This document shows positions 4,400 through 31,503 of a DNA stretch of 40,228 nucleotides, piece after piece. The notes beneath the pieces were generated by a model. That model was not told the DNA's origin and did no database searches. It saw only the letters and a program-made list of their open reading frames with translations. The stretch's first letter is position 1, and every line of letters starts with the position of its first letter. Source of the stretch: Oscillatoria sp. CS-180 (GTDB taxonomy: Bacteria > Cyanobacteriota > Cyanobacteriia > Phormidesmidales > Phormidesmidaceae). Location: contig NZ_JAQMUB010000074.1 in NCBI RefSeq assembly GCF_028330965.1, positions 1 to 40,228 on the forward strand, given 5' to 3'. Both the position numbers and the translations under genes were made by a program.

Positions 4400-5548
4400 T
4401 TACAAAAGTGCCTGAATATTCATAGCTGCCTCTTGAATGATAATTGCTGCGTGATTAACATCCGCATAAGTTGTGAATTTACCGAGACCGATGCGGAGTG
4501 AGCCTTCAATAATATCTTCATTAAGATTTATAGCACGTAGGACATGAGAGGGTGCCTCAACTCCGGAGGAACAGGCAGAACCTGTAGAGATGGCTAGCTT
4601 ACGTCGGACTCTGGCAATAATGGCGCTGTTGGGAATTTTAGGAAGAGAAATGTGTAGGTTTCCGGCAAGACGATTTTCTTGGTCGCCGTTCACGACAAGC
4701 CCCGGAATTTTTTCGATCAAAAGTTTTTGGAAGATATCGCGCTTCCCGCCAATAATTCTCTCATCTTCTTCCATCTCGATCTCTCGTAATCGACACGCTT
4801 CGCCCATGCCAACAATGCCAGGAAGGTTCAGCGTGCCTGAGCGTAGCCCTCCCTGATGTCCACCTCCGTAGAGTAACGGTTCTAAGGGATGTCCTCGTTT
4901 GACAACTAAGGCTCCAATGCCTTGGGGGCCGTAAAATTTATGGGCAGAGATAGAAAGCATGGTGATGCCCCAATCCTGGAAGTGAATAGGGATTTTACCG
5001 ACAGCTTGCGAGGCATCGCATAAGAAGGGAACGTCGTAGATTTGAGCGATGTGGGCAATTTTATCGATGGGATAAATAGTGCCAACTTCATTATTGGCGG
5101 CCATGATACAGATGAGGTGAATGCCGCTGGCACAGGATTCCTCTAACTGGGCGAGATCGATGTGAGCTTGGGCATCTACTGGGAGGATTGAGAGCTTGAC
5201 GCGACCTTGGTCTTGCAGGACAAAACAGGTGTCAAGGACAGCTTTGTGTTCGACGACAGAGAGTGCAATATGTGGATGAATGCCTTTGTTTTCCAGGTAC
5301 TGAATGGTTCCTTGAATCGCGAGGTTGATGCTTTCGGTAGAGCCAGAAGTAAAGATAATATTGCGGGGGGCAGCTCCCACCAAATCAGCCACATATCGCT
5401 TTGCTACTGTGACAGCAGCTTCGGCTGCATCGCCAATCTCGTGATCAGTACTGCTAGCATTGCCGAAGCCATCAGTCATAGCCCATAGGACTTTCTGGGC
5501 AACGCGAGGATCAACAGGTGTGGTGGAATGATAATCGAGGTAGATCAT
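4400..5548 (-). CDS. dndA: cysteine desulfurase, DndA/IscS-like
   Basis: A 382-residue class V aminotransferase-fold enzyme of full length for the family. It would use PLP to remove sulfur from L-cysteine and carry it as a persulfide. Visible residues: His101 (VVEHKAV), PLP-binding Lys204 in ISAHKFYGP, and the persulfide Cys326 in STGSACSSG. The HQGGLRSGT motif also fits. In phosphorothioation systems this enzyme feeds sulfur to the DndC/BrxP-type protein, which is present here at 19990-20787. It lies at the left end of the island on the same strand as the main operon but is separated from it by the plus-strand gene at 5715, so it needs its own promoter in 5549-5710. The symbol is given by context; an IscS/NifS housekeeping role cannot be excluded. 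Confidence 0.9.
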   Translation of the reverse strand: MIYLDYHSTTPVDPRVAQKVLWAMTDGFGNASSTDHEIGDAAEAAVTVAKRYVADLVGAAPRNIIFTSGSTESINLAIQGTIQYLENKGIHPHIALSVVEHKAVLDTCFVLQDQGRVKLSILPVDAQAHIDLAQLEESCASGIHLICIMAANNEVGTIYPIDKIAHIAQIYDVPFLCDASQAVGKIPIHFQDWGITMLSISAHKFYGPQGIGALVVKRGHPLEPLLYGGGHQGGLRSGTLNLPGIVGMGEACRLREIEMEEDERIIGGKRDIFQKLLIEKIPGLVVNGDQENRLAGNLHISLPKIPNSAIIARVRRKLAISTGSACSSGVEAPSHVLRAINLNEDIIEGSLRIGLGKFTTYADVNHAAIIIQEAAMNIQALL

Positions 5549-5652: not shown

Positions 5653-5715
5653 GTGAACCATAAAATTAGAGCATATGATGAAGCATACCTTAAAGAGTTA
5701 GAGAAACTGCAGTGA
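5653..5715 (+). CDS. possible 20-residue leader peptide
   Basis: The GTG 5653 frame encodes a short charged helix (NHKIRAYDEAYLKELEKLQ) and stops with TGA at 5713-5715, whose last base is the A of the ATG of the next gene (TGATG). Such a stop-start overlap is typical of translational coupling. It could equally be the tail of a decayed small gene. No conservation test was possible. Confidence 0.3.
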   Translation: MNHKIRAYDEAYLKELEKLQ

Positions 5716-6884
5716 TGGAAGGAGTATTTGCGGCTCTAGATCGCTTCTTTATTGACATTATTGGGACTATTATTCCAGGAAGCATTCTCATTCTAGGAAT
5801 TTGGGTGATTCTGGATCAGCCAAATTTATTCGGCTCGACTCAGCTTTTCCCAATAGGTGATGTGTCGGGATGGATACTATTGATTGCCATTTCTTACATT
5901 ACAGGCCATGCTGTTTCAAGTATTGGAAAGGGATTAACCAGTTTCATTATTGAGCCGTCCTTTCAAAAACTATTTAAAGTATGCCCCACTTTTTCCACAT
6001 ATTTCAGTTTTATCAAGTCAGGCAAAGAGTTAAGGGAGCAGATTGAACGGCGCGCAGATTTTTCTGGCTTTGTTAGTAAGATTTCAAGGAGATTCCCATC
6101 ACTAAGCGATTTTCCAGAAAGTGAGAAGGGCTTTGGCTTTTGGAGAAATCTGGCTCTATCGACATCGACGGATAACTCTCTCGTTTATCGCTTCGTTTTC
6201 ATTTCTTTATTGAACTTAGGAATTGCTACAGACCTAATTTTAATTGCTCTGTTATGGGCACTTTTAATCGCACTTCAGAAAGTTGGCATGGTCTCAAGTG
6301 TTCAAACGATGAACTGGGTGATATGGATTGCTCTCCTCTTCATGTCGCTTCCATTTCTAGAGAGATACTATCAGTTTCATAGGCGTTCTCTTCAGATACC
6401 ATTTTCTATGGCTTTTATTGCTCTCAGTAACGAAGCAGAAAAAGAGGATCGTTTGGCTGAAATTGGCAAGCAGACCGGAACCCCTGCTGGGAAGGCAACC
6501 GTTTATCTGGCTGGTGGGTTTTGTTCAGATTGGCAGGACCGAGTGAAGTTAGCAGTGCCTGAGTTTGAATATATAGACCCCAGACAACATAACTTGACGG
6601 ATCCTGTCGAATATACATTGTGGGATTTGGAAGGAGTTGCCCAGTCACATATAGTTTTTGCATATTTGGAAAACGCAAATCCTGGGGGATATGCTCTGGC
6701 TTTAGAGTTGGGTTACGCTAAAGCACTAAGCAAAGTCGTCATCTTTATAGATGAATGGGCAAGCTCAGAACATGAACAAGCAAAATACATTGATATGCTA
6801 AGAGCTGCCTCTATGAAAGTGTTTAGCTCTCTAGAGGAAGGGATTGATTTTTTGGAGGTGCTTTCTAAGCTTTATCGAAGGTAG
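5715..6884 (+). CDS. membrane protein with nucleoside 2-deoxyribosyltransferase-like domain
   Basis: A 389-residue protein from ATG 5715. Hydrophobic segments lie at about residues 12-33, 52-70, 158-187 and 200-215. A cytosolic domain at ~262-350 begins TVYLAGGF--DWQDR, contains an Asp/Ser helix (WDLEGVAQSHIVFAYLE) and ends with GGYALALELGYAKALSK, which matches the nucleoside 2-deoxyribosyltransferase fold. Glu331 of ELGYA is in the place of the catalytic glutamate. Enzymes of this fold cleave N-glycosidic bonds of nucleosides or nucleotides. It is divergent from the desulfurase and convergent with the brxL-like gene (15 bases between ends). A membrane-tethered nucleotide-cleaving effector would suit a defence locus, but that is inference. 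No SLATT motif was identified with confidence. Confidence 0.75.
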   Translation: MEGVFAALDRFFIDIIGTIIPGSILILGIWVILDQPNLFGSTQLFPIGDVSGWILLIAISYITGHAVSSIGKGLTSFIIEPSFQKLFKVCPTFSTYFSFIKSGKELREQIERRADFSGFVSKISRRFPSLSDFPESEKGFGFWRNLALSTSTDNSLVYRFVFISLLNLGIATDLILIALLWALLIALQKVGMVSSVQTMNWVIWIALLFMSLPFLERYYQFHRRSLQIPFSMAFIALSNEAEKEDRLAEIGKQTGTPAGKATVYLAGGFCSDWQDRVKLAVPEFEYIDPRQHNLTDPVEYTLWDLEGVAQSHIVFAYLENANPGGYALALELGYAKALSKVVIFIDEWASSEHEQAKYIDMLRAASMKVFSSLEEGIDFLEVLSKLYRR

Positions 6885-6899: not shown

Positions 6900-8348
6900 T
6901 CAACAACTCTCCACCAAGATATCGCGACCAAATTGATGAAATTCATCGTCGAGGGTGTACTCAGAGTCACGTATAGCTTGTCGAAGTTTGCGGGCTGGTT
7001 TGAGGCAATCCCGTTCGTAATCCATCAATGTGAGGTCCAAATGGGGATAGAGAATTTTCAGGAATCCAGCAGCGGATTTGAGGATAGCGTTTTGGTCACG
7101 AGCGGAGGCGCTTTGATCAAACTGGGTGTGGTTTTGAGCGTAGGTGAAGTAGCGGTTGTCGCGGCGAAGGCTAAGGAGGGCCTCACCGAAGAAGTCCATC
7201 TTGAGGCCAACTTGAGATGCAGCCATGTCGCGGGTAAACTTGGGAATCTCCCAGCCGGGAATAATACCAGCGAAGCGATCTAACAAAGCGGTTTCAGAGA
7301 AAAAGCTGGGAAGATCGACAATCAAGTTATCTGGGTTTTTAGGTTGCAAGCGACCGTCTAGCTCGATGTTGGCAAGCAACATCAGTGAGCAGTCACTAGA
7401 GATTTCTTGGTAGCCACCACAATTAAATCGGTTACTAGCAAGATACGTTTTCAAAGGCCCAATCGCTTCATCAGGGTTATCAAAAGTCAGGCTCTGAACT
7501 TCATCTAAAACAACGACATCATGGCGACCGAGAATCCCGACCTCACGGGTTCTAGCGTTGAAGAACAGTTGAGCACGAGAAACTTTGCCACCGCTGACGA
7601 GGGAGACCTTACTGCTGATATTTTCGTAAACATAGCTTTTGCCAGTACCCTTGGGAGCTAGTTCCATTAGATGGTAGTTAGCTTCAACGAGCGGAAGTAA
7701 ACGTGCCAACATCCAGGTTTTGGCATCAAGGGTATATCTAGGGTGATCTGGGTTGTACCCCATAGAGCAAAACATGAGGTCGCGCCATTCATCAGTGTTG
7801 AACTGTTGGCGGCATTCAGCATAGGCTCCCAGGTCAACGTTGGAGCATTGAAAGGGGTCGAAATCAATTACTTCGGGGGTACCATCTGGCAACAACCCTA
7901 GGGAAATTTTGCCCCATACTCCTTGCCGTAGCAGCATTTCGTGGCGCTCAATAAGGTCTGTGGGGATGGCGCACTTATTTAGGCTGAGGACGGGAATTTG
8001 TGCTTCAGGATCAGGAATAGCACCTTTCCCCTGCTCAAGCTTGACCCGGACTTTGAGCAGAGCAATGAGTTTATATATATCACCTTGAGTCAGTTTGAAG
8101 TTGATGACGTTGGCATCGTCCTTACGAGGAAAGGCTTTGCTCACAAAGGCATTGATTTTTTCTGCTTCAGCCGTTGACAGCGCTCCACTACCGGGGACTA
8201 CTTTGTCAAGCAGCCACTCGGCAACAAAGCTGGGTACTCCTGCCCCAGTAAGGCCACTGGATGGTAAGCGAGCCTTATCGATACTGAGGTTACCGAAGAC
8301 TTCACGGACACGATCGCTGTTATAAACAGAGCTATTCAAAGAAGTCAT
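6900..8348 (-). CDS. brxL: BrxL-like AAA+ ATPase, short form
   Basis: A 482-residue protein. ATG 8348 is preferred over an upstream GTG because GGAG lies ten bases before it. It has an N-terminal BrxL-type region, Walker A in LAPKGTGKSY (~231-239), Walker B VVVLDEVQSL (~278-287), and an AAA+ C-terminal part with FSETALLDRFAGIIPGWEIP, characteristic of BrxL/Lon-like ATPases. BrxL acts on DNA in BREX exclusion. This protein stops soon after the ATPase module, and only 15 bases separate it from the convergent neighbour, so the C-terminal Lon-like region of longer BrxL proteins is absent. Its start overlaps the pglZ-fusion stop by 17 bases, so it is translationally coupled and last in the operon. 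Confidence 0.8.
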   Translation of the reverse strand: MTSLNSSVYNSDRVREVFGNLSIDKARLPSSGLTGAGVPSFVAEWLLDKVVPGSGALSTAEAEKINAFVSKAFPRKDDANVINFKLTQGDIYKLIALLKVRVKLEQGKGAIPDPEAQIPVLSLNKCAIPTDLIERHEMLLRQGVWGKISLGLLPDGTPEVIDFDPFQCSNVDLGAYAECRQQFNTDEWRDLMFCSMGYNPDHPRYTLDAKTWMLARLLPLVEANYHLMELAPKGTGKSYVYENISSKVSLVSGGKVSRAQLFFNARTREVGILGRHDVVVLDEVQSLTFDNPDEAIGPLKTYLASNRFNCGGYQEISSDCSLMLLANIELDGRLQPKNPDNLIVDLPSFFSETALLDRFAGIIPGWEIPKFTRDMAASQVGLKMDFFGEALLSLRRDNRYFTYAQNHTQFDQSASARDQNAILKSAAGFLKILYPHLDLTLMDYERDCLKPARKLRQAIRDSEYTLDDEFHQFGRDILVESC

Positions 8349-11300
8349 CAAGTCCGCTCTCCAATCCACTGCTAAAGATCTGCTTCACTTCAATGACTGA
8401 ATCTTGATCCAATTCAGCCGTTCCCATTTCAGCATTTTGATACTGGAATTCGAGTTTGCCTTTCAAAAGTAGAGCGTTGCCATCGTGAGTGGGTGGCAGC
8501 TCTGGCCAATTTGGAGTTTCGATATCGAAGGTTTGAGTTTCTTTCGGACTGACAGTTCCAATGAGTTCGGTACCTTGCTGAAGGCCCTTTATTTGATTGA
8601 CGACGAGTTTGAGGTCAGCAATTGCGACGGAGTTGGGATTATCAATCTCAACTTTGAGAATGCCCGCTTCGCTAGGTCGGCCTGAGCCGGAACATTTAAC
8701 AATAACAGGCAGGCGTTTGACTAATCGTGTCAGCACAGAAAAGCCGATGACGACTTCTTCTGGATAGAGACCACCGTGACACCCCACGATGCTTTTGTCG
8801 TCGGCATAGCTGAAGGAACTAAAGCTATCAGAGCCTCGAATAACACTGATGTCGTGGGGTAGATCAAAACGTTCTTTGTCGAGAACTACAAGTTGTGGAT
8901 AATCAGCTTTACCAATCGCCATTCGCCCCTTCATTTCCAAATCTTCGGACAATGATGGCAGTTTGTTGGATCTACCCATAAGTTGACCATGGTCACTTGC
9001 AACGACGACTCGTAAGGTTTCTCTTTGAGGATGCAGATCTACAAAGCGTAAAATATCTTCGGTGATCGTTCGTAACTCTCTAGGTCGCTGAACTTTATAG
9101 AGTTCTTCCCAATCCACTTCATCATGGAAAAGTTTGTCAAAGCGATCAGTGTCCCAACAATAGAGTTGTCGGTTACCGGATAGAAGATCCTCTTTTAACC
9201 GTTGTTGTTTGACATCATGGTCCGTATAACGCTTACCGTTTTGAGTCAGTAAATCATTGGCTATGAAGCCTTCGCCAGCACTAGGTTTCCATGAGCTATG
9301 ACCTGGACGACGCTGGCTGTATAAGCTCCACTTAGCGTATTCCGTTTTAGTCGGCAGGATGCTAAATCGAGGCTCCAAATTGCGCTCCAGTTGCAATTGC
9401 TTTTGCTCAGTGAGCAAGTCTAAAAGCACTTGATGATCAAGCCAACCTAATCCATCTACGACTACCCAGAGTACAGGCCCTTGAGAGCAGAGTTCTTGAA
9501 CATGATGGCTGACGTTATAGTTGAGCCAAGAACTGGAAACAGCATCAACGATTAAGTTGGGATAGTGCTTGAGTATCCATTCCTCGAAGCTGGCAGCGAG
9601 GCGATCGCAAACTTTTTTCTCTAATGGCAAATTCGTGCTTTTGGTTTCCCATCGCCGCAACGGTAAGTATTGATCTGTCACCCATTGCAAAGCGTCTGAA
9701 GTAGAAGCATCTAAACATAGTGGTTGGGGTTCAGGGGGACGCTGATACTGCGTCAGTTCTTCGTACTGCGGATAAGCGATGTAACCTTTGAGGTGCTTTT
9801 GGCGCTCCGATGTAATGAAATCAGGATGCTGCTGAAGGACTTTATACGCAGTTTCGGCAACTCTTTTCGAAGCTGGTTGCGTATTGAAATTTAAATTGTC
9901 AAGAATTCTTCCATGGGTGCGGTAAAGTTCACGTTCCCAAAAAGCTTCGAATTCGGCTTTCAATGACAAGGGGACATCTAGGAACGGATAGGAACCGAGT
10001 TCACTCAGTTTAGAATCGGCAATGCCAAGCCACTGCTTGAGGAGTTGTTGCTTGTCGGTAGTTTGATAGTAGGAAGTCAAAGCGGACTTAGGACACTGAG
10101 CCTGCCAAGCTTTCTCTAGAGCGCAGGCTTCTTGAGGAACTTCAATCGCCAACCACTCTGCCAGATTTTCGATAGAGGGAGCATCTTTCCAAATACTCGG
10201 ATCACTCTTGGTTAATTCAGCGAGCAAATTGGCAACGGAGTTTGTCTCGTATCGTTCTAAGTGCATCACAACCGCTAAACACTGTTCTTTAGTCCAATCG
10301 GTTGGGATGTTTACGGGGCCTAACAGTTCAGCAAGCCTTTCATGCGGCAAACGTTTGATTTCAGCAATTTGATGAGTCCGGTTCCAGCCCCGCAACCACT
10401 CTTCTGCCCAATTGCATAGCGCCTTACCACGCACCCAATAGGGCGTATTGCTAATGCCAAAATGACGCATCCAGTCCGCTTCGGTGTCGATGACAGTATA
10501 CCTGCCGGTATCGGGGGGGTAGGCTTTGGAAGGATCTAAGACAATTGGTTTTTCGGCATTAGGGGAAGCTTGCTGTTCCGAAGCGGGCAATTCAAATAGA
10601 TTGAAGGCGATGTCAGGAAATGATTTTTCTGGCTCTGCCGCAACAGCAGGCTTAGGTCTAGCGATAGGAGCAACTAAAGGTAGCTCATCGGGCTGTATAG
10701 GTACGGTCTCAATCGGAGCCGTATTGACAATGGGTTGCTCATCAACAAGCTGAACAGGAATGTCCTCTGGTTCTGGTTCTATCAGCTCTTCAGGAAGAAC
10801 AGTTCGTTCTTCTGAGGTGACCTCAATGGTGTCAACCTCAACATCCTCAGATATTGATTCTTGGGGAGAGATGATGTAATTGAGAGCTTCAAGAAACTCG
10901 GTAGCTGAAGAAAAACGATCGCTCCGTTTAGGCGCAATGGCTTTTTTCAGGAAGTCCACAAGTCCTTCGCTCAGGCTTTCACACCCTTCAAATACTCGTG
11001 GGTCGTGACACCTCTCGCCAAGCTGCGGTTGAGCCCCACCAAAGGGATATTCTCCTGTAATGAATTCATACAGAGTAATGCCCAAGGCGTATAAATCGCG
11101 ATCGACTCTTTGCTCAGTGGAAGGGGTCGAGGTTGGTCTCAGATCAGGGGGAAGATAGCGACGAGTTCCTGCGGTGATAGCAGCTTCGTCTGCCTCAGCA
11201 ACAGCGACATTGAAATCAATAATCTTGATTCCTTCAACCGTTAGGAGAAGATTAGAGGGCTTGATGTCTTGGTGGTAGAACCCATGCTGATGCAGGTGAA

Positions 11301-13101
11301 GAATACCTAATAAAATTTGCTGAGCAAATTCCAAAACCTCATCTGTAGTCAGTCGTTGTTCCTGAAGGACATGTTCAAGGTCTTGACCGTCAAGATATTC
11401 AAAAACAATGAATGGTGTATCGTCAAAATCAGTCAGCCTATCAGCCCAGATCACATCAACAATGTGAGGGTGCTTAGGAATTTTCCGAAGCAATGCATAT
11501 TCTTGTTGAACTCGTTCAAAAAGAGAACGGCGATCGCGAGTAACAAGCTTTATTACACAGTGACTTTTTCCAAAAGTATCAAAGACTTTATAGGCGACAG
11601 CAAAGCTTCCCGGTTTACCTAATCGCTGCACGACACGAAATCGGTTGTCTAAAACTGTTTCGGCTGGCAGATCTCTTAAGTCTGGCTTTGGCAAACTAAT
11701 GAGCGGTGTCAAAGCTCTAAGAGCCTCATCAGCATTTTGAAAGCGGCTCTTAGCATCAAAAGCACATAACTTTTGTAGCCACTGATCGAACCCTGGATTT
11801 AAGTCAGGATTCAGTTCAGCGACGGATTGAGGTAGCTGTGACTCGCGTTCGTAGAGATCATGAACGTCTTGAAAGGCAACTTGACCTGTCAGCAATTCGT
11901 AAAACACCAACCCGGCTGAAAACAGGTCGGACTGAATGCTAGCTTGGGAAGGATCTTGATGGCACTCAAGTGCTTGATAAGCAGAAAACTCTTCTAGTTC
12001 TTCTGCAATATCTGGAGCAATAGTGCTAGTTCGATTAGTGATGCGAGCGTAGTCAAAACTCGTAAGTTTAGCTTGTCTCTCAGTCGTGACAAAAACGGTA
12101 TCGGGAGTGATATTTCGGTGAATAACGCCATGCTTATGAGCATGTTCTAAGCCATGTAGAACATCCCGCATAATGTTGAGCCTTTCTTCAGGATTGAGGT
12201 CAGCCTGTTTAATGCACTGACTGAGTGCTTGACCAGGGATATCTTCATAAACAATGACTAATCCCTCACTATCAGAGCTTTCAAAGGGTGACTCTTGAAA
12301 CCCTAGAATATTTGGATGGGGAGGAATTTGATGAACTGCAATAAAAGCTGTACTAATAATTTGAAAGGTCCTCTGTCTCTCCTCAGGCTCAAGAAACAGA
12401 TCAACTTTGTAGACTCTAAGCCGTGACTTTAGGCCACTGACGCCAAAGGTCGTTTTCTTAGCACGGTACTCTGCATAGCGATCCGTACTACCCAATGACT
12501 CTTCAATCTCCCAATCTCGATAAAATTTCGGAACTCGGTTGGCCTGACTACGGCCTTGGATGGCCTTATCAACAATTGAGATATAACGACGAATATCGCT
12601 CGTGAACCGCGAGGGAATTCGAGTGTGGTCTCTGAAGAAATTAATTCCCTTTTTGTCGAGGTAAACAACTTTTTCAAGCTCTCGCTCGTGCCCAGGTCGG
12701 GGAATGATATCGGCGTTATCAGCCGTCAGCAAAACTGCTTCACCAACCCATACCTTATCAAGCTGGGCTCTGAGCGCTCTATTGATATCCAGGATGGCAC
12801 TCTTCAAAACTTTAGAGTGCTTTCGCAGTTTTTTCAGGGGCGAAGGGTAATACTGACTCCGCCCCGGATACCACTTATCCCGGTCAATATTAACTGTGCC
12901 ATGTACCCCTTTAACATCGATCGCGTAGACACAGTGAGGAGTCAGCAGGATGATATCAACCTCATAGGGCTCATCCCCCTGCATGATTTCCAGATTGGTA
13001 TAGAGCGTGTAATTCTCATCAGGTAGATGTTCACGCAGGTAGACGATCGCTAGTCGTTCTGATTCGTTTTCTGGTTGTCCGAACGGAATAACTTTTGCCA
13101 C
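8332..13101 (-). CDS. pglZ: NERD-pseudokinase-kinase-PglZ fusion protein
   Basis: A 1589-residue protein from GTG 13101 (GGAGG seven bases upstream). Residues ~10-110 are a NERD nuclease-like domain with YEVDIILL and AIDVKG (D49, D62, K64). Residues ~195-470 are a kinase fold with HRN instead of HRD and SFD in place of DFG, so probably inactive. Residues ~487-745 are a second kinase with Lys518 (VIKL), HQD612-K-SN and DFN631, likely active though non-canonical. An acidic/proline-rich linker (~745-860) leads to a helical part and a PglZ domain with VVVDGLG (1213-1219) and VASDHG (~1367-1372). NERD plus tandem kinase is the plan of PglW, so PglW and PglZ functions are joined in one chain. It overlaps the brxC-like gene by 52 bases. 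Confidence 0.85.
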   Translation of the reverse strand: MAKVIPFGQPENESERLAIVYLREHLPDENYTLYTNLEIMQGDEPYEVDIILLTPHCVYAIDVKGVHGTVNIDRDKWYPGRSQYYPSPLKKLRKHSKVLKSAILDINRALRAQLDKVWVGEAVLLTADNADIIPRPGHERELEKVVYLDKKGINFFRDHTRIPSRFTSDIRRYISIVDKAIQGRSQANRVPKFYRDWEIEESLGSTDRYAEYRAKKTTFGVSGLKSRLRVYKVDLFLEPEERQRTFQIISTAFIAVHQIPPHPNILGFQESPFESSDSEGLVIVYEDIPGQALSQCIKQADLNPEERLNIMRDVLHGLEHAHKHGVIHRNITPDTVFVTTERQAKLTSFDYARITNRTSTIAPDIAEELEEFSAYQALECHQDPSQASIQSDLFSAGLVFYELLTGQVAFQDVHDLYERESQLPQSVAELNPDLNPGFDQWLQKLCAFDAKSRFQNADEALRALTPLISLPKPDLRDLPAETVLDNRFRVVQRLGKPGSFAVAYKVFDTFGKSHCVIKLVTRDRRSLFERVQQEYALLRKIPKHPHIVDVIWADRLTDFDDTPFIVFEYLDGQDLEHVLQEQRLTTDEVLEFAQQILLGILHLHQHGFYHQDIKPSNLLLTVEGIKIIDFNVAVAEADEAAITAGTRRYLPPDLRPTSTPSTEQRVDRDLYALGITLYEFITGEYPFGGAQPQLGERCHDPRVFEGCESLSEGLVDFLKKAIAPKRSDRFSSATEFLEALNYIISPQESISEDVEVDTIEVTSEERTVLPEELIEPEPEDIPVQLVDEQPIVNTAPIETVPIQPDELPLVAPIARPKPAVAAEPEKSFPDIAFNLFELPASEQQASPNAEKPIVLDPSKAYPPDTGRYTVIDTEADWMRHFGISNTPYWVRGKALCNWAEEWLRGWNRTHQIAEIKRLPHERLAELLGPVNIPTDWTKEQCLAVVMHLERYETNSVANLLAELTKSDPSIWKDAPSIENLAEWLAIEVPQEACALEKAWQAQCPKSALTSYYQTTDKQQLLKQWLGIADSKLSELGSYPFLDVPLSLKAEFEAFWERELYRTHGRILDNLNFNTQPASKRVAETAYKVLQQHPDFITSERQKHLKGYIAYPQYEELTQYQRPPEPQPLCLDASTSDALQWVTDQYLPLRRWETKSTNLPLEKKVCDRLAASFEEWILKHYPNLIVDAVSSSWLNYNVSHHVQELCSQGPVLWVVVDGLGWLDHQVLLDLLTEQKQLQLERNLEPRFSILPTKTEYAKWSLYSQRRPGHSSWKPSAGEGFIANDLLTQNGKRYTDHDVKQQRLKEDLLSGNRQLYCWDTDRFDKLFHDEVDWEELYKVQRPRELRTITEDILRFVDLHPQRETLRVVVASDHGQLMGRSNKLPSLSEDLEMKGRMAIGKADYPQLVVLDKERFDLPHDISVIRGSDSFSSFSYADDKSIVGCHGGLYPEEVVIGFSVLTRLVKRLPVIVKCSGSGRPSEAGILKVEIDNPNSVAIADLKLVVNQIKGLQQGTELIGTVSPKETQTFDIETPNWPELPPTHDGNALLLKGKLEFQYQNAEMGTAELDQDSVIEVKQIFSSGLESGLDDFFE

Positions 13102-16100
13102 CAGCCTTCCTCCGATTTACCTGACAAATCTGCTTCTGTCTGATCAACGAGATATCGTTCTAGATGTTTGTAAAGAGCTTGCCGCTGTGAACGAGGAAGC
13201 TGTCTAAACATCGTGATGATTTGATTACCTGAATGCTTGTTTTGTTCGTCGAGGCACTGACGTTCAATTTCAAACAAGACTTTTTGTTCTGCCGTGTTTA
13301 AGAACTCAACGTACTCGTCTCGTGAATCGTGAATTAACTTCAAGACTTCACTAGCAAGATCATATTTCTTGCTCTCGCGCATGGCATTAAGCATTTGAGA
13401 AGTTTTGTCATTGAGCGATTGGAGCCAAGAGCGAGCATGTTCTTGCTTTTCAATAAGAAGTTTCTGCCGCCGTTTGCTAAGTTCCTCCAGCGCAGTACTA
13501 ATCCGATCTTGAATTCCCTGAGATATGCCCTCAGAAGAATTTTGCCAGGATATCAATTGGTCAATCTGGCGGTTGCAGGCATCAAGATTGGCAGCTTTAG
13601 CCATATCTAGTAAGGGCATCAAACGCACAAGCGTTTCAATCTCGGCAGTTAATGCTTCTACTCGTTCCGATTCATCAGAGTTGGCATAACAAAATGACTG
13701 CTTTAAGAGGGTTTGTTGTAGTTTGCGAACTTCTGTAGGAGTTGAGGCATAGGTTAACTGCTGCTCAATTTGTGTCAGGTCACGTTGGTAAGTATCAATT
13801 TTCTGCTTTGTTTGCTCTTCCAAACGATTTAGACGGTTTTCGTGGAAGCGCTCTGGATACCTGAGTAAGTCTTCTGACTGGGCGAGATCTTCCAGGATTT
13901 CGTTACAAGCAGCAATACCATCCGCCTGCTGATATCGATTTTCCAGTTTGTCTAGGGTTTTTAGGTCACCTTGGATATCGTCAATAGCTGCCCCGATCGC
14001 TTGATAAGCTTCAGATTCAGAGGAATCCCTAAAAGCAGCTTCTAACCGGGCGTGGGATAGCTGTAATCGATTTAAGACTTCACTTGTGTTAACAGTCGCT
14101 AGTTGCTCTCGTAGGGCGTTCAAGTTTTGTTTATGGCTGTTGATTTTGTCCTGACAAGCTTGAAGAATCTGGCTGATCTCTGCTTGAAACTGCTCAGGAA
14201 AATGTAGATTAGCCTGCAGCATTTGTATCTGGGCAAGGGACTCCTCGCAGGCATGAATTGAGCTGTTCTGATTGGGTCTTAACTGCTGAATCTCCTTGAT
14301 AGTTTGCTTATCTTCAGCCTGCTTTCTTTGAGTATCCGCCTGCTGCCTCAGGGTTTCTGCCTGAGCTTCTAATTCTCCTAGGCTTTGAGTGAGACTGGTT
14401 TTAATCGCTGCAAATTCATCAGTTTCTTCTAAAGCAGAAATTGCTCTCTGAAGTGATTCTTTTCTATTCTCATAAAGCTCTAGTCGTGAGAGCTTACGAT
14501 CGCAGATTTGTTGGAACCGCTTAGTAATTTGCTCGTTACCTTGGGTCTTGAATCCCTCTAAAGGCTCTTGGTATTTCCGCAATAGTTCTGCATCGTCAAC
14601 GGGGGTGAATTCGAATCCCTTCAGCTCTTGATAAGCCTGGAAAGCTTCAACAATTCTGGCATCCGGTAAATCTCGGAGTCGCTGGAGAGGCTGACGGGCA
14701 ATATCGAGTTCTGCCTTCAGGAGTTTTTCAGTTTGACTCTTGTCTTCAATGCCTTTAAGTTCACGATTCAGACTATCGTTTAAGCGATCTAATCGCTCAC
14801 GGCTTTTGGGATCAGTAAAGCGATCGCGGTGTTTCGCCGTCTCTTGCAGCAAAGCAACAATTTGGCTCTGAGTTGTAGCACTGGTCAACCGCTCTTCCCA
14901 GGCGTCTAGTTTTTGATTCAGCTCTCGGTACTGCCGATCAATGTCTTGAAGCAAAAGCTGAACCTCGTCGGCTTCGGCTTTTTCAGTTGGGATGTGTTGC
15001 CGGATAGCCTCAATCTCGCCGATCACCCGAGTAAAATCGGCCTGACTGGAGTAGTCATTAAGCGGCTGAGCGATCGCTTGAGCGGCCTCTAGCAATTGCT
15101 GGATGCGGGCATTTTCCTCAAGGGAACCGCGTACCCGTTCTGCTACTTTCAGCGCATTTTGCAAAATCTCTTGCAAATGCTCCGGCAGATCCGACGTTTG
15201 TTGGAAGGTGTTGATCAGATTCTGGAGATTTGCTTGATAGGTACTGCAAGCTTCAGTAGTTTCCAGGGTTTCTGAGCGCAAGCTCACTTGCTCGGTGTAT
15301 TGTTCGATGCGGGTAGCGATCGCCTGACTAGCCGCATCATGACGAGAGCGCTGCTCGGTAGTGAGTCGTACAGAAATGACGTCAGAATTTAGAGAATAGC
15401 TCGGCAGCGGTTGCTTAAGCTGCTGATACAAATTAAGGAGCGTTTCAATCTCAGCATCATCGGTCAAAGCCTCGGTTGATTCAACCGGTTGGAACCAAGC
15501 AGTGATGGGTTCTAAGGCTGCTTCGACTTTTTCTTTAATACGTTGGACGCCTGTTACCTCCCCAGGTTCTGCCTCATTTGATTGTAGGAAATTATTCGCC
15601 TTCTCCAAATATTCTTGAACCTGGTTTAGGTCTAATGGAGGTGTAGGTAATTCAGGAACATCTATTCCTTTTCTTCGAATTAATTTTGCCTTGCATTTAA
15701 CAATCCAAGTATTAACAAACTTCTTAGGATCTTTAAATAAATCGCTGTCTGGGTTTGCCCATTCTTTAAGTGAAAGTGTTTTAACTTTAACAAGCTGATT
15801 ACTGCTAGTGACTAGTTCAGGGCCTTCCAGTAAGACTTCCTTGCGATGATATGCCAACCACGCGGCTAGAATGACTGAAAAATTATATTCACTGTATCCA
15901 TAAGGAGGTGAAGATAATTTCTCCCATATTTTTATTAAAGGAAATTTTTGTTCAGACTGCTCACCTAAATCTGTAAAAGCCGATATTTCTTCCCACGCGG
16001 CCTTCACCTGAATATTTGTAGGCTCTTTAGGAATGTAGCTCTTCCGAGTTCTTCTTAAAATGCCCCACTCTTCTACGTAAACACTATCAACAACAGTCTT

Positions 16101-18575
16101 ATAGAATTTTTGTGTTGGCAGTGTTTGAGGTGAAAGGGTATTAGAAAGTAGCTGTGTGGCAACAGTACCTACAATAAGCTTACCCGTATTATGGTCAGAA
16201 CGGAGTTTATCAATACCTGCAACTGTTGGCACTAAAGGGAACATTTCTTCGAGCATAGCACTGACAAACAGAGCTACATCGCTTTGTTGAGTTGAATTTT
16301 TCCGGAACTTATTTAGAGTCTGCTCGCTAACAATACAGTGATGAGTATATGATTTGATAACCTTCAGGATTGTTGTGTTGATTTGTTCTTCCCAACGTTG
16401 CTCAAGTTGGTCACAAGCAGCTGATCCCCACATTCTCTTACGCGCTGGATCTATATTTCCTAGTTCTTCTAGTTGAAGCTTAATTCTCGGTAAATCTCCA
16501 ACTCCTAATGAAGGGATTGCAACAACCACCTTTTCTTTATAAGGAGAAGCTTGCAGAGCGTCGTTAATAACTCTACGTAAATCTTGTATTTCCTCTATTG
16601 ACTCCGCAATCACACAAAGCACCAGCCCTCTTTGATTCGTAAGTTTTCCAGGGCTTGATAATTTTCTTAGAACTTGGTCAATACCGATAAATTGAAGTTC
16701 AAATTGCCAATCCTCATATCGCAAACCATGTGTTTTAACAAAATCAGTGCCAGCAACACACTTGCTTTTCAAGAAAAAATTCATTCTGGCTGTGCAATGT
16801 GCAACAACGCTAGATAAGTGAGTAGGCTGATTACGCGTTAGGTCTTGGATTTCGTCTTTGATGCCTGATGGAGATATACCTTCCCAAAAACGATATAACT
16901 TAATTTCAGGTTTGTAGGAGATGAGTTCGCGGGTATTCATCAAACTATGCAGGGCTACTTTCATGCGGCTTTCGGAAATCCCTGCTAGCGCTCCGAGGAG
17001 CTCTTCATGGTTATCGCGATCGTCTTTTGTCAGCTTTTGGCCACTGCTTGAGTAGAGGAATAATGCTTTGAGTGCTTTCAGCTCATCGGGATTATTAGAG
17101 CCCAATACGACTTTTTCGGCCTCTTCATAACGTTTATAGATGCCTTCATTTGAAAAGTCTTTTCTGAAAAAGTCAAAAAGTTGGATGGCATGAATATAAT
17201 TAAGTCTTTCTCCTACGTCTTCAACAGGAGTTTCCTCAATAAATTTTTTAACGTGCTTTTTAATGAATTGAATGGCCGTACGATCTTGGGTAAAGCTGAG
17301 ATTGCACAGTAGATATGCAGCAATTGGATGTATGGGGAAACAACCTTTTGAGAGATGAGTATAAAAATACTCTAGGGTCCAGCCCCGTTGTTTGTAGGTT
17401 TTAATGCGTTTTTCAAAAGCATCACGGGCTGAAGACAGTAAGGTATCATCCCAACGATGAAGAAATTCTTCCCATTGCGATGTTCTTTCTTTTTGGGTCA
17501 GCATGTTGTCGATGACGAGCTCTAGGCTGGATGCTGGACCATCGTACGTGCTCTCTTCGGGGGCTAAGCGAGTTGCAATTTGTTCATAGTTTTTCTGAAC
17601 GCTTGGCGATATCCCCGTAGTTTTCGAAGGGTGGATCTGAGTGAAGCTGAACAATGCGATCTTGCTTTTGTATTCAGGAAGTGCGCAAATGTTAGTGATG
17701 TTTTGCAAGGCGGTGCCACCCGCTCCAATTTGATCGGCTGCCCAGGATTGCAGGTAATACCGCATCTCATCGAACAGGATGAGGATACCGCTGAACCGGG
17801 CATTTTCGCCAGAGCACAGATTATCTAGCAGATCGCGGAGGATGGCTTCAACGTTGATGTCGTGCTGAAAGTCGGGGGTGACATTGGAAACATGACGGCA
17901 GACATCTTTGACAGCGCGAATAACGCCGGGATTATTTTTCTGAAGCTGTTTGATCAGGCTGTTGACATCGCCATCGGGATTATCCAGCCTTTCCAGATAG
18001 GCATCGGCCTTGGCTTTATTTTCTGGGCTGAGTCCTTCCAGATAGTTCAGCGGTTCGCGGCACATGTGGGTGGCGATCGCGTTATCGACCCCAGCCGCTG
18101 CCAATTCATCAATCACCACTTGCAAGAACTGCTTGCGGATATCGCCGCCTTTGTCCCCGCTGAGACACAGCACTAGGTGAGGTTTTTCCTGGCGTTGTTT
18201 GTAGCTCTTGATTTTTTCGGCAATGACTTTGGAAGAACCGGAAGTCGCTTTATCGACCTGATCGACAATGCCGTGGACTTCTGGGCTATTGGCGGGTTTG
18301 CCGAAGAAGTTGGCGAGTACGACGGCGAAGTGAGATTTACCCTTACCGTACTGCTGAATCATCATGTGGACGTTCGGCTCGTTGCGGCTGTGGTAGCTCT
18401 CTTTGAGGCGATCGAGAATGCCGACGGTCGATAACTCCGGCTTCTTCGGGTCGTAGTTGAAGATGAAACTGTCGCAGAGATCTTGGTTCGTCTCTGGGTC
18501 GTCCATCATATCAAAATTGACAGCGTTGGCGACGTTTCCTTTTTGGTTAACTTCGACGAGTTCTTTGAGGAGCAT
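13050..18575 (-). CDS. brxC: BrxC/PglY-like giant P-loop ATPase with coiled-coil tail
   Basis: A 1841-residue protein, longer than typical BrxC (~1200). The N-terminal ATPase has QQYGKGKSHFAV (74-85) as Walker A, with Gln where the first Gly is usual, and Walker B ILILFDE (264-270). Residues ~300-1000 follow the BrxC/PglY plan (FSFTQIHPS, HPIAAYLLCNL, KDEIQDL). From ~1000 to 1740 the chain is almost unbroken Gln/Glu/Leu coiled coil, ending in a basic tail. BrxC is an essential ATPase of BREX and a partner of PglZ, encoded directly downstream with a 52-base overlap. Base composition drops visibly in the middle (about 15600-17300) compared with its 5' end. A clear ribosome site is not seen before ATG 18575. 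Confidence 0.8.
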   Translation of the reverse strand: MLLKELVEVNQKGNVANAVNFDMMDDPETNQDLCDSFIFNYDPKKPELSTVGILDRLKESYHSRNEPNVHMMIQQYGKGKSHFAVVLANFFGKPANSPEVHGIVDQVDKATSGSSKVIAEKIKSYKQRQEKPHLVLCLSGDKGGDIRKQFLQVVIDELAAAGVDNAIATHMCREPLNYLEGLSPENKAKADAYLERLDNPDGDVNSLIKQLQKNNPGVIRAVKDVCRHVSNVTPDFQHDINVEAILRDLLDNLCSGENARFSGILILFDEMRYYLQSWAADQIGAGGTALQNITNICALPEYKSKIALFSFTQIHPSKTTGISPSVQKNYEQIATRLAPEESTYDGPASSLELVIDNMLTQKERTSQWEEFLHRWDDTLLSSARDAFEKRIKTYKQRGWTLEYFYTHLSKGCFPIHPIAAYLLCNLSFTQDRTAIQFIKKHVKKFIEETPVEDVGERLNYIHAIQLFDFFRKDFSNEGIYKRYEEAEKVVLGSNNPDELKALKALFLYSSSGQKLTKDDRDNHEELLGALAGISESRMKVALHSLMNTRELISYKPEIKLYRFWEGISPSGIKDEIQDLTRNQPTHLSSVVAHCTARMNFFLKSKCVAGTDFVKTHGLRYEDWQFELQFIGIDQVLRKLSSPGKLTNQRGLVLCVIAESIEEIQDLRRVINDALQASPYKEKVVVAIPSLGVGDLPRIKLQLEELGNIDPARKRMWGSAACDQLEQRWEEQINTTILKVIKSYTHHCIVSEQTLNKFRKNSTQQSDVALFVSAMLEEMFPLVPTVAGIDKLRSDHNTGKLIVGTVATQLLSNTLSPQTLPTQKFYKTVVDSVYVEEWGILRRTRKSYIPKEPTNIQVKAAWEEISAFTDLGEQSEQKFPLIKIWEKLSSPPYGYSEYNFSVILAAWLAYHRKEVLLEGPELVTSSNQLVKVKTLSLKEWANPDSDLFKDPKKFVNTWIVKCKAKLIRRKGIDVPELPTPPLDLNQVQEYLEKANNFLQSNEAEPGEVTGVQRIKEKVEAALEPITAWFQPVESTEALTDDAEIETLLNLYQQLKQPLPSYSLNSDVISVRLTTEQRSRHDAASQAIATRIEQYTEQVSLRSETLETTEACSTYQANLQNLINTFQQTSDLPEHLQEILQNALKVAERVRGSLEENARIQQLLEAAQAIAQPLNDYSSQADFTRVIGEIEAIRQHIPTEKAEADEVQLLLQDIDRQYRELNQKLDAWEERLTSATTQSQIVALLQETAKHRDRFTDPKSRERLDRLNDSLNRELKGIEDKSQTEKLLKAELDIARQPLQRLRDLPDARIVEAFQAYQELKGFEFTPVDDAELLRKYQEPLEGFKTQGNEQITKRFQQICDRKLSRLELYENRKESLQRAISALEETDEFAAIKTSLTQSLGELEAQAETLRQQADTQRKQAEDKQTIKEIQQLRPNQNSSIHACEESLAQIQMLQANLHFPEQFQAEISQILQACQDKINSHKQNLNALREQLATVNTSEVLNRLQLSHARLEAAFRDSSESEAYQAIGAAIDDIQGDLKTLDKLENRYQQADGIAACNEILEDLAQSEDLLRYPERFHENRLNRLEEQTKQKIDTYQRDLTQIEQQLTYASTPTEVRKLQQTLLKQSFCYANSDESERVEALTAEIETLVRLMPLLDMAKAANLDACNRQIDQLISWQNSSEGISQGIQDRISTALEELSKRRQKLLIEKQEHARSWLQSLNDKTSQMLNAMRESKKYDLASEVLKLIHDSRDEYVEFLNTAEQKVLFEIERQCLDEQNKHSGNQIITMFRQLPRSQRQALYKHLERYLVDQTEADLSGKSEEGWWQKLFRSDNQKTNQND

Positions 18576-18661: not shown

Positions 18662-19099
18662 CTAGGTCGGAACCCGCAGAATCCGATTTTCGGGCCAGTT
18701 GGGCGGCGCGAGAGGCTGGGGTAACAAAACCCATAGGAGGCTTTCGAGCTTGCGGGTCTTTTCCAGGTTTTGCCAAAAGAGGGTGACTTGCCCTCCGGCT
18801 TTGACGCGCAAGTAGGTAACAAGGGTATCTAGCCCTTCGAGCAGTACGACCGGACGAGAGGAGTCGCGGCAAATATCTTTGATGGCGGCGAGTTCTTCAT
18901 CAATGGCGTAGTGCAGATTGAGAAACTTGTCGTCCGGATCAATCCGCTGAACGAGGTTTTCGCGATAGTTCACCTGCTCGGCGTTGTTGTAGTAAGCCAG
19001 TTGCCACAGCTCTTGCTTAGTGGGCGCATCCCAGATCAGCAGGTGAGCCTGATCATCCGGACGGGCGTCTTTGAGGGGCAGGCTAGTGGTTGTGGTCAT
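18662..19099 (-). CDS. small protein between DUF4007 and brxC, possible BrxB-like
   Basis: A 145-residue protein from ATG 19099, overlapping the upstream DUF4007-like gene by 17 bases. It has the rhythm of a small alpha/beta fold: an aromatic N-terminal part, then SRPVVLLEGLDTLVTYL (strand-turn-helix), then VTLFWQNLEK and LLWVLLP. There is no Walker A motif. BREX loci often carry a small RecA-fold-like protein (BrxB) near brxC, and this might be a diverged equivalent, but similarity is not strong enough to name it. 86 bases separate it from the brxC-like start. Confidence 0.65.
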   Translation of the reverse strand: MTTTTSLPLKDARPDDQAHLLIWDAPTKQELWQLAYYNNAEQVNYRENLVQRIDPDDKFLNLHYAIDEELAAIKDICRDSSRPVVLLEGLDTLVTYLRVKAGGQVTLFWQNLEKTRKLESLLWVLLPQPLAPPNWPENRILRVPT

Positions 19100-19916
19100 A
19101 GGCTTGCTCCAGCAACTCTAGGGGGCTATCCCAACGGGGCAGGATTTGGAAGGGCGGCACTTCGCGCCGTTGTTCTATAATTCCCAAAACTTCGAGGGCG
19201 TTAAAGCGCTCTTGCAGAGTATCGGTGGAGATGCCTAAGGCGGCGGCTAAGCTAAGTTTGTGGCTCAAAATCGCTTCGGTGAGCACCGAGGTTTGGCCAA
19301 GATAGTCGCGTTCCCAAATTTTGGCGAGAAAGTAACCCGTTAAGTATTCGTTGGGCTGCCACCCCTGACCGGAGATGTAGTCGTCACTTTCAGTGTAGAG
19401 ATACCGACTGCCGGAAAGGGCATAGGTTTCGGTGTAGGCGCGAAGGAGGATTTTGAGGTTTTTGGTCAGCTTTTTGGTGGTCTCTTCGGGGAAGACGGTG
19501 CTGGCATAGCCGACCAGTTCATCGTGGGTGAAGCTGCGATGGTCGGGCAAGAAGCTATAAATGAACCAGGTCCAGCCCCCCCAATCAGCGGGATTGTCGG
19601 GCGGGGTAGTGAGACCGTTGTCGCCAAAGCTGAGGTAGAAGTGCATAAACCAATCGGTAAGAGGCGACTCAAGGTAGGGGTCTTTTTCAAGAATGAGGAC
19701 ACCCTCTGGGCTCAGTTTGTCGTCTTGCACCAGTCCGGCTCGAATTGCCCAACTTTTAATCCGTAGAACCTTTTCATTTCCCAGACCAGTTCTATCCATC
19801 AGCCCTTGGCGGCTATCTTTAAGCCCTTGTTCCTCTTGTGCAGCTTGAAGGATCTTGAGAACATCCTCTTTTTTAAGTGCAAACGTGCCGTGGAAACTGA
19901 GCTGTAAACCAGACAT
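19083..19916 (-). CDS. DUF4007-like protein, second copy
   Basis: A 277-residue protein from ATG 19916; an upstream in-frame TTG is less likely. It opens with LSFHGTFALKKEDVLKIL and has GLGNEKVLRIKSWAIRAGLV at ~44-63, matching the H-TF...GVGKNMVRSIRYWC-A pattern of the DUF4007 protein at 26644-27570. The middle part has DWFMHFYLS and WTWFIYSF, also usual in the family, and the C-terminus ends as a winged-helix-like segment. DUF4007 proteins are recurrently found next to PAPS-reductase-type phosphorothioation genes, and here brxP is directly upstream (73-base gap). Likely an accessory or DNA/protein-binding component; no catalytic residues are seen. Confidence 0.75.
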   Translation of the reverse strand: MSGLQLSFHGTFALKKEDVLKILQAAQEEQGLKDSRQGLMDRTGLGNEKVLRIKSWAIRAGLVQDDKLSPEGVLILEKDPYLESPLTDWFMHFYLSFGDNGLTTPPDNPADWGGWTWFIYSFLPDHRSFTHDELVGYASTVFPEETTKKLTKNLKILLRAYTETYALSGSRYLYTESDDYISGQGWQPNEYLTGYFLAKIWERDYLGQTSVLTEAILSHKLSLAAALGISTDTLQERFNALEVLGIIEQRREVPPFQILPRWDSPLELLEQAYDHNH

Positions 19917-19989
19917 GAAATTTTTCTCAGATTGATGGGGCAAAAACTGAAGCAGCTGTTAGTTATAGAGATTATTTTTCCCACTAGAA

Positions 19990-22846: not shown

Positions 22847-23082
22847 TCCTCGTCAATCAAATGGGTAATTGGCTGCTGCGATAAATTTTTAGGGCCTTCT
22901 ACGCAGCCGATTAAATTCCCTGCGGCTGCAAACACCGAACTTTCTTCATCTGGTTTTACTGCCTCTGTCTGTGAAGGGGCTGTTAACCGCCGGGATAAAA
23001 ACTCGATGAAGTCAAAAACCTCTCGCTGTTTTTCAAGGGGCAAGCCCCGAAACTTGGAGATTACTGCTTCTTCAAGCGTCAT
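22843..23082 (-). CDS. DUF2281-like small protein, antitoxin-like
   Basis: A 79-residue protein. ATG 23082 is chosen because AGGAGGAGCC immediately precedes it; longer versions starting inside the ATPase gene lack such a site. It begins MTLEEAVISKFRGLPLEKQR and continues with EVFDFIEFLSRRL, the pattern of small DUF2281-type proteins that are often upstream of toxin or Uma2 genes. It overlaps the stop of the ATPase gene by 11 bases and the Uma2 start by 4, so all three are translationally coupled. Confidence 0.7.
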   Translation of the reverse strand: MTLEEAVISKFRGLPLEKQREVFDFIEFLSRRLTAPSQTEAVKPDEESSVFAAAGNLIGCVEGPKNLSQQPITHLIDEE

Positions 23083-31474: not shown

Positions 31475-31503
31475 ATTATCGACAACAATAGTATACTTGT
31501 CCT

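What the first reader, a model, noticed from the sequence alone, without database searches (positions are those of the whole stretch)
8332..13101. PglW-like and PglZ-like proteins fused in one chain
One 1589-residue frame carries NERD, a pseudokinase (HRN, SFD), a second kinase with Lys518, HQD612 and DFN631, an acidic/proline linker and a PglZ domain with VVVDGLG and SDHG. In other BREX types the NERD-kinase protein (PglW) and PglZ are separate. A fusion implies that they act together at fixed ratio and that phosphorylation may control PglZ in cis.
Basis: partly seen in the sequence, partly recalled or inferred. Interest (0 to 1): 0.8.

Follow-up and report, generated by a model that had tools for sequence, protein, structure and literature searches.

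The report
Kinase-nuclease module fused to PglZ
In some cyanobacteria a DNA-cutting protein of a phage-defence system (PglZ) carries an extra nuclease and protein-kinase unit on its front end; related bacteria have the same operon without that unit, or without the cutting part, which suggests that the protein is a docking platform with exchangeable weapons.

Summary
The minus strand 8332-13101 encodes one 1589-residue chain: NERD, pseudokinase, kinase, acidic/proline linker, PglZ. It is not an assembly accident: the junction lies in one open frame in 8 of the 32 cyanobacterial genomes in which the PglZ half gave a match. Four, the window included, keep both halves intact (1552-1593 aa; the other three are 42-55% identical to the window). 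Constraint is strong on every domain and weak on the linker.

The operon occurs without the fusion. In 17 further genomes, and on plasmids of Pseudanabaena and Thermomicrobium, the slot before BrxL holds a PglZ without the module. The front module resembles MAD6 of MADS more than PglW. PglZ and BrxL trees reject one clade of fused loci, so gains or losses recurred.

The most striking new result: four genomes without the kinase, and one with it, keep PglZ's N-terminal module and tail but lack the catalytic core; two of these five loci may be decaying.

Control of PglZ by phosphorylation in cis is possible but untested. Verdict: a new variant of type-4 (phosphorothioate) BREX. The text I could read describes iSTAND-PglZ fusions, not this one.

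The parts
8332..13101 (-). Fusion protein, 1589 aa: NERD - pseudokinase - kinase - linker - PglZ
12730..13068 (-). NERD (PD-(D/E)xK-type nuclease-related) domain, residues 12-124; D49 and D62-x-K64 conserved
   Evidence: Pfam; motif kept in 8 of 8 fused copies; dN/dS 0.07 against L001
11692..12531 (-). Pseudokinase, residues about 191-470 (HRN for HRD, SFD for DFG)
   Evidence: HRN in 7 and HRH in 1 of 8 fused copies; dN/dS 0.05
10870..11658 (-). Predicted active Ser/Thr kinase, residues about 482-744: K518, E534, HQD 610-612, DFN 629-631
   Evidence: Pfam 198 bits; these residues in 8 of 8 fused copies; kinase folds in a model of low to moderate confidence
10552..10866 (-). Acidic/proline linker, residues about 746-850, with FxLF motif at 833
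   Evidence: dN/dS 0.52
10321..10545 (-). PglZ N-terminal module (proposed docking module), residues about 853-927
   Evidence: present in fused, standalone and core-less forms
8722..9474 (-). PglZ catalytic core, residues about 1210-1460: D1216, T1251, D1370/H1371, H1442
   Evidence: dN/dS 0.06
8332..8721 (-). PglZ C-terminal region (beta-sandwich by literature) and tail FSSGLESGLDDFFE
   Evidence: shared with core-less forms
6900..8369 (-). BrxL (overlaps the fusion's end by 38 bases)
   Evidence: TIGR02688 442 bits, cut-off 329; Pfam
13050..18575 (-). Large ATPase-type protein, 1841 aa, BrxC/SspC-like (weak); overlaps the fusion's start by 52 bases
   Evidence: SspC 55 bits; BrxC wHTH 23.5 bits, below cut-off 27
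18662..19099 (-). 145-aa protein of the five-gene cassette, no Pfam match
19083..19943 (-). Second DUF4007 protein (BrxA-like by literature), 286 aa
   Evidence: Pfam 45.6 bits
19990..20787 (-). PAPS-reductase-family protein (BrxP/SspD-like)
   Evidence: Pfam 54.5 bits
20851..21675 (-). NO VEIN C-terminal domain protein
   Evidence: Pfam 25 bits, cut-off 22.1
22151..22846 (-). Uma2 putative endonuclease
   Evidence: Pfam 79 bits
23072..26644 (-). SspC-like ATPase, 1190 aa
   Evidence: PADLOC SspC 1478 bits
26644..27570 (-). SspB / first DUF4007 protein
   Evidence: PADLOC SspB 401 bits; Pfam 337 bits
27857..29872 (+). DNA phosphorothioation-associated putative methyltransferase
   Evidence: TIGR04096 836 bits, cut-off 150
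4400..5548 (-). Class-V aminotransferase / cysteine desulfurase-like protein
   Evidence: Pfam 222 bits; found near BrxL in several relatives
5712..6884 (+). Nucleoside 2-deoxyribosyltransferase-like protein, also in L001
   Evidence: Pfam 30.3 bits, cut-off 30

Best explanation
Shown: a NERD-pseudokinase-kinase cassette, of the kind known from PglW, DndF/SspF and MAD6, sits in front of PglZ inside a phosphorothioate (type-4-like) BREX operon. PglZ's small N-terminal module and its C-terminal tail are the constant part; the kinase cassette and the nuclease core vary between genomes. Inferred: the N-terminal module docks the protein on the ATPase/BrxL restriction complex, as residues 1-98 of type-I PglZ bind BrxB, and through it BrxC. 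On infection that complex is remodelled; the kinase, held off by its pseudokinase partner, phosphorylates itself, the linker or a complex partner, and this frees the two nuclease activities (NERD as back-up, PglZ as the main cutter). The fusion thus brings a second effector and a switch to a complex that otherwise carries PglZ alone.
For: One frame with all domains; four intact fusions, the window included. NERD and kinase catalytic residues kept in 8 of 8 fused copies, and PglZ core residues in the 4 of 4 intact ones. dN/dS (one pair, window against L001) 0.05-0.11 in NERD and both kinases and 0.06 in the PglZ core against 0.52 in the linker. Same operon with standalone PglZ. N-module and tail, or a tail-like end, kept where the core is gone: G328, G705, G726 and G484 without kinase, G116 with kinase. 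Literature: PglZ 1-98 mediates binding to BrxB and was crystallised with BrxB and BrxC 1-551 (PMC13326643, passages); T538A ablates type-I PglZ nuclease activity, costs about 3 logs of defence, yet defence 'remained impressively active' (PMC12205998, passages); K677A removes PglW autokinase activity, and that lysine is required for Pgl function (PMC4365076, passages).
Against: No phosphorylation, nuclease or phage assay of this protein was found. Homology of the N-module to residues 1-98 of type-I PglZ was not shown; only position and persistence match. The predicted structure of the PglZ half failed (pLDDT 32). iSTAND is the usual N-terminal partner of type-4 PglZ (PMC12839542), and I could not test for one here. 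Of the four intact fusions only the window and G712 sit in a cassette whose five genes all read intact. In G439 the large ATPase lacks its first 274 residues and neither DUF4007 nor the 145-aa gene is on the contig; in G550 the ATPase frame is interrupted. Core-less forms may be remnants: G116's PAPS gene has a stop inside and its DUF4007 and 145-aa genes were not found upstream, G484's ATPase gene is split, and the ATPases of G705 and G726 match only the first 1313 of 1841 residues. Against decay, dN/dS of three core-less genes is 0.32-0.49, near that of two intact PglZ pairs (0.32, 0.37). The kinase has DFN for DFG. The loss of about 3 logs with T538A shows that PglZ catalysis matters in type I.
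Confidence: 0.48

Rival explanations
1. Co-delivery only: the NERD-kinase cassette is a second, independent suicide effector that rides on PglZ's docking module. The kinase phosphorylates host proteins to stop growth and does not regulate PglZ.
For: G116 keeps cassette plus N-module without the PglZ core, so the cassette need not have PglZ as its target. Fused N-terminal domains of DndF are read as co-effectors in PMC10853773 (passages). Many PD-T4-6 kinase models match, which may only reflect the shared kinase fold.
Against: Pseudokinase plus kinase are kept in all 8 fused copies, which suggests a regulated switch, though a regulated suicide kinase would look the same. G116 may be decaying.
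Confidence: 0.35
2. Phosphorylation in cis switches PglZ on or off.
For: One chain with a kinase, a low-complexity charged linker and a nuclease; the 121-residue linker holds 13 Ser/Thr in the window.
Against: The linker is the least constrained part (dN/dS 0.52) and is only 39 residues in G459's fused copy, which is itself truncated later; relatives have PglZ with no fused kinase.
Confidence: 0.12
3. The fusion is an assembly or gene-decay artefact joining two genes.
For: L001/G387 has a broken frame in the PglZ part; G459's fused copy is truncated at 968 aa; G116 and G440 are cut by contig ends.
Against: Four intact frames of 1552-1593 aa in four genus codes and three family codes; low dN/dS on both sides of the joint.
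Confidence: 0.02

Closest known systems
Type-4 (phosphorothioate) BREX, PglZ with N-terminal iSTAND (PMC12839542)
   Same: PAPS reductase, DUF4007, PglZ, BrxL and cysteine desulfurase in one locus; PglZ there also carries an N-terminal fused partner (292 of 457 taxa in that paper)
   Different: Here the fused partner is NERD-pseudokinase-kinase; DUF4007 is separate from the PAPS reductase and present twice; an SspB-SspC pair is present besides the large ATPase
PglW of type-2 BREX/Pgl
   Same: Same NERD - inactive kinase - active kinase order (PMC12839542)
   Different: PglW continues into wHTH and iSTAND domains and is a separate protein from PglZ; PglW model far below cut-off (245 of 990 bits)
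MAD6 of MADS
   Same: Closest front half by score and in the tree made; a locus with mad6, mad7, mad5 and mad2 matches is in a genome of the same genus, G170
   Different: After the kinases MAD6 shows a weak AAA match or an SspF-like half (92 bits), no PglZ; its neighbours there include a DNA methylase
DndF/SspF with N-terminal NERD and kinases (PMC10853773)
   Same: Same cassette in phosphorothioate-linked loci; G004 has it before SspG and SspH matches and after genes of SspB/C/D size
   Different: Cassette joined to the DndF/SspF core, not to PglZ; distant in the tree

Membership tests
Type-4 BREX | PAPS-reductase-family protein (BrxP) | tested here: met
   19990-20787, PF01507 54.5 bits, cut-off 22.5
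Type-4 BREX | DUF4007 protein, often fused to the PAPS reductase | tested here: met
   Two separate copies, 26644-27570 and 19083-19943; not fused
Type-4 BREX | BrxL | tested here: met
   TIGR02688 442 bits, cut-off 329
Type-4 BREX | PglZ | tested here: met
   Below the Pfam and NCBIfam cut-offs, but PorX-PglZ profile match 1.3e-8 and invariant active-site residues
Type-4 BREX | BrxC-type ATPase | tested here: inconclusive
   1841-aa protein: weak BrxC wHTH and SspC matches only; a clear SspC is also present
Type-4 BREX | Cysteine desulfurase (56% of taxa in PMC12839542) | tested here: met
   4400-5548, aminotransferase class V
Type-4 BREX | Phosphorothioate in the host's DNA | not testable with these tools
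   Needs chemistry on the strain's DNA
PglW (type-2 BREX) | NERD-pseudokinase-kinase front half | tested here: met
PglW (type-2 BREX) | Full-length PglW model above cut-off (C-terminal wHTH and iSTAND half) | tested here: not met
   245 of 990 bits, match ends at residue 742; PglZ follows instead
MAD6 (MADS) | NF047741 above cut-off | tested here: met
   657 bits, cut-off 460; but an SspF-type protein also passes, so the model is not specific
MAD6 (MADS) | MADS partners (methylase, MAD5, MAD7, MAD8) beside it | tested here: not met
   The two adjacent proteins match BrxL and, weakly, SspC in PADLOC, no MAD family (6 window ORFs scanned with PADLOC, the rest with Pfam only)
PglZ/alkaline-phosphatase-type nuclease | Thr corresponding to PorX T272 and the metal-binding residues | tested here: met
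   T1251, D1216, D1370, H1371, H1442 (T272 matched by counting in the alignment); PorX T272/H500 correspond to PglZ T538/H741 (PMC12205998, passages)

The most novel reading that the evidence does not exclude
The PglZ slot of these systems is an adaptor with exchangeable weapons. A docking module of about 75 residues plus a C-terminal tail are constant; the NERD-kinase cassette and the PglZ nuclease core are gained and lost independently, and all four combinations occur (the kinase-without-core cell rests on one genome, G116). Some of these BREX systems would then restrict phage with NERD/kinase, or with no PglZ catalysis at all, so PglZ's nuclease is not the universal effector.
Probability: 0.42. 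Interest if true: 0.76.

Novelty: new variant of a known kind. Interest (0 to 1): 0.62.

Why it matters
Which BREX protein stops the phage, and what switches it on, is still open. This gene family offers a natural two-by-two set (kinase with/without, nuclease core with/without) on one operon type, so the roles of the kinase and of PglZ catalysis can be compared on natural proteins. It also adds PglZ to the partners of one portable NERD-kinase cassette, beside PglW (literature) and the DndF/SspF and MAD6 proteins (literature), which points to a general switch-plus-effector. NCBI's MAD6 model passes on the four fused chains scanned besides the window's, so annotation could name them MAD6 and hide the PglZ half.

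Tried and rejected
Artefact: rejected by independent intact copies. Joining of two neighbours that stand apart in sister loci: no such partner in the six non-fused genomes searched with the front half. Single origin with plain descent: PglZ and BrxL trees reject one clade of fused loci (AU p 0.0098 and 0.0012), though well-supported branches alone force only 1 and 2 changes and long branches are present; the front-half tree does not reject it (p 0.13). Repeated loss or module transfer is the simplest reading. Two standalone PglZ (G478, G701) keep a piece of the linker with the FxLF motif, which favours loss but could also be ancestral. Viral contigs: 45 pattern matches, none a relative. Structure: the PglZ half failed (pLDDT 32.2) and was not searched; the front half reached 55, and the 50 Foldseek rows shown are all kinases, which adds little to the sequence result. 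No primary MADS paper stood in the listings; three listed papers that contain the word (PMC12904381, PMC12322248, PMC11842806) were not opened. The type-4 BREX paper of Yuan et al. is not held; nothing of it was read.

Other phyla were not surveyed: phylum searches need a genome handle, which I had only for cyanobacteria. The 386-, 63-, 291- and 388-genome sets overlap, and in three of them only the best 2 or 3 candidates a genome were scored; 32 distinct genomes had a match. The front-half search scored only 4 candidates a genome and may miss relatives.
Full report
What is there. The window lies in G000, contig 14. The minus strand carries SspB/DUF4007, SspC, Uma2, NO VEIN, PAPS reductase, a second DUF4007, a 145-aa protein, a 1841-aa ATPase-type protein, the fusion and BrxL; a cysteine desulfurase lies beyond. 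The fusion overlaps the ATPase gene by 52 bases and BrxL by 38. A phosphorothioation-associated methyltransferase (TIGR04096) is divergent at 27857-29872.

The fusion is real. NERD and kinase pass Pfam's cut-offs; PglZ is just under (20.9, or 23.1 when the part is scanned alone, of 25). Pfam PglZ matched 7 of the 9 members of A1 at E <= 0.01, and the A1 profile found the PglZ domain of PorX structures at 1.3e-8, with the D, T, DHG and HGG motifs aligned. A1 includes a Thermomicrobium protein that its record names 'PglZ domain family'.

How common it is. With the PglZ half as query, matches came in 8 of 386, 4 of 63, 16 of 291 and 28 of 388 genomes (the sets overlap), 32 distinct genomes in all. 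Eight carry the module in frame with at least the start of PglZ: G000, G439, G550 and G712 intact (1589, 1593, 1552, 1567 aa); G387/L001 with a broken frame in PglZ; G440 cut by a contig end; G459's second copy truncated at 968 aa; G116 without the PglZ core. Four (G328, G705, G726, G484) are core-less without kinase. Seventeen further genomes have a PglZ without the module, counting G604 (very divergent), G002 (one stop) and G555 (broken); G459 has such a copy too. Three are left: G352 (decayed), G446 (fragments), G698 (a doubtful E=3.7e-4). The architectures rest. In plasmids, 3 of 3 matching records are without the module.

The operon occurs without the fusion. Pseudanabaena (plasmid L029) has the order SspB-SspC-PAPS-DUF4007-145aa-ATPase-PglZ-BrxL-desulfurase with a 740-aa PglZ; Thermomicrobium (L031, another phylum) has the same order with a 726-aa PglZ, though the gene in the 145-aa place (166 aa) did not match. 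The five-gene core DUF4007-145aa-ATPase-PglZ slot-BrxL also occurs without phosphorothioation genes next to it, for instance beside dxr in L092 and gyrB in L075. Of the four intact fusions, the window and G712 have all five genes intact; G550 has them all (with two DUF4007 copies) but an interrupted ATPase frame; G439 has a shortened ATPase and no DUF4007 or 145-aa gene on its contig.

Gain and loss. In the BrxL tree (29 rows, 6 fused) the fused loci need 4 changes and one clade is rejected (AU p 0.0012); in the PglZ tree (25 rows, 5 fused), 3 changes and p 0.0098. Starred branches alone force only 2 and 1 changes, and long branches are present in both. In the tree of the front half (13 rows) one clade of fused modules is not rejected (p 0.13); the three MAD6 rows fall among the fused rows, away from the SspF type. 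Read together: one cassette, related to MAD6, joined PglZ and was later lost in several lines, or was passed between PglZ genes. G478 and G701, without the module, still begin with the FxLF piece of the linker seen in G712 and the window.

Are the parts kept working? Between the window and L001 (one pair), dN/dS is 0.07 (NERD), 0.05 (pseudokinase), 0.11 (kinase), 0.52 (linker), 0.19 (N-module), 0.20 (helical part), 0.06 (PglZ core; its synonymous divergence is high, 0.64) and 0.21 (C-terminal part). Catalytic residues of NERD and kinase are kept in 8 of 8 fused copies; the pseudokinase lacks the HRD aspartate in 8 of 8.

The unexpected part. Three genomes (G328, G705, G726) have intact 215-219-aa genes in the PglZ slot that keep the N-module and the C-terminal domain with its tail but have no helical part and no catalytic core; G484 has 130 aa with N-module and a tail-like end. 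dN/dS among the three is 0.32-0.49, near two intact PglZ pairs (0.32, 0.37). G116 has NERD-kinases, N-module and tail-like end, no core; its protein is split over two contigs, so the joint inside the kinase is inferred, but kinase end to N-module lies in one frame. Thus kinase with or without, and core with or without, all four occur. Against a functional reading: G116's PAPS gene holds a stop and its DUF4007 and 145-aa genes were not found upstream, G484's ATPase is split, and the ATPases of G705 and G726 lack the C-terminal part. Literature gives a reason to take it seriously: residues 1-98 of type-I PglZ mediate its binding to BrxB and were crystallised with BrxB and BrxC 1-551 (PMC13326643, passages); a nuclease-dead PglZ loses about 3 logs of defence but 'remained impressively active' (PMC12205998, passages).

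Mechanism. PglW's kinase lysine is needed for autokinase activity and for Pgl function (PMC4365076, abstract and passages), the nearest experimental precedent that I found for the kinase here. I infer docking by the N-module, release or activation by the kinase, and two nuclease payloads. Control in cis is one way among several. The linker is weakly conserved, and short (39 residues) in G459's truncated copy, which does not favour it as a precise switch.

Phosphorothioate link. A strong BrxP/SspD relative occurs in 4 of 18 cassette-bearing genomes searched (G352, G664, G116 with a stop inside, G550); in 6 others (G382, G718, G478, G484, G623, G705) the only match was weak (E 1e-4 to 1e-3), and 8 had none, among them the intact fused G439. 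In G382 and G718 the weak match, in frames of 536 and 571 aa, lies within about 6 kb of the cassette. Genomes whose fetched loci already showed an SspD were mostly not in this set, so 4 of 18 is not a prevalence. What protects self DNA in the 8 without a match is unexplained.

Compared with print. PMC12839542 (abstract, sections 18 and 34, passages) describes iSTAND-PglZ fusions in type 4 and the NERD-kinase-kinase order in PglW and in a subset of DndF. In the text that I read, and among the papers listed by searches (most of them not opened), I found no NERD-kinase-PglZ fusion and no core-less PglZ. Its supplement was out of reach, so the fusion may be listed there.

Noticed in passing
L092:6479-7138, L093:9847-10503, L027:1601-2248, L082:2286-2678: Core-less PglZ: short open genes with only the N-module, tail and (in three of four) the C-terminal domain, between the large ATPase and BrxL.
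   Followed up: partly
window 13156-16842 (large ATPase gene): Against Leptolyngbya L001 this stretch is 73% identical (13576-15909) or not aligned as DNA, while the neighbouring stretches are 86-91%: a mosaic, as in specificity genes.
   Followed up: no
L075, L092, L093, L096-L098: The five-gene cassette DUF4007-145aa-ATPase-PglZ-BrxL occurs with no adjacent PAPS or SspC match, beside dxr in L092 and gyrB in L075.
   Followed up: partly
window 18662-19099: The 145-aa protein, without Pfam match, was found in 24 of the 34 loci searched (and in L072); a possible counterpart of BrxB, untested.
   Followed up: no
window 19083-19943 and 26644-27570; 13050-18575 and 23072-26644: Two DUF4007 proteins and two SspC/BrxC-like proteins (one weak) in one operon: it looks like an Ssp modification set joined to a BREX restriction set.
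   Followed up: partly
L105:4309-13500 (genome G170, same genus as the window): A MADS-like locus (PADLOC matches to mad2, mad5, mad6, mad7) whose mad6 is related to the fusion's front half.
   Followed up: partly
L106:299-18762: Genes of SspB/SspC/PAPS size followed by an SspF protein with NERD and two kinases, then SspG and SspH.
   Followed up: partly
window 31052-32814 and 34971-35570: IS200/IS605-type transposase genes and an ISL3-type transposase match lie to the right of the defence operon.
   Followed up: no
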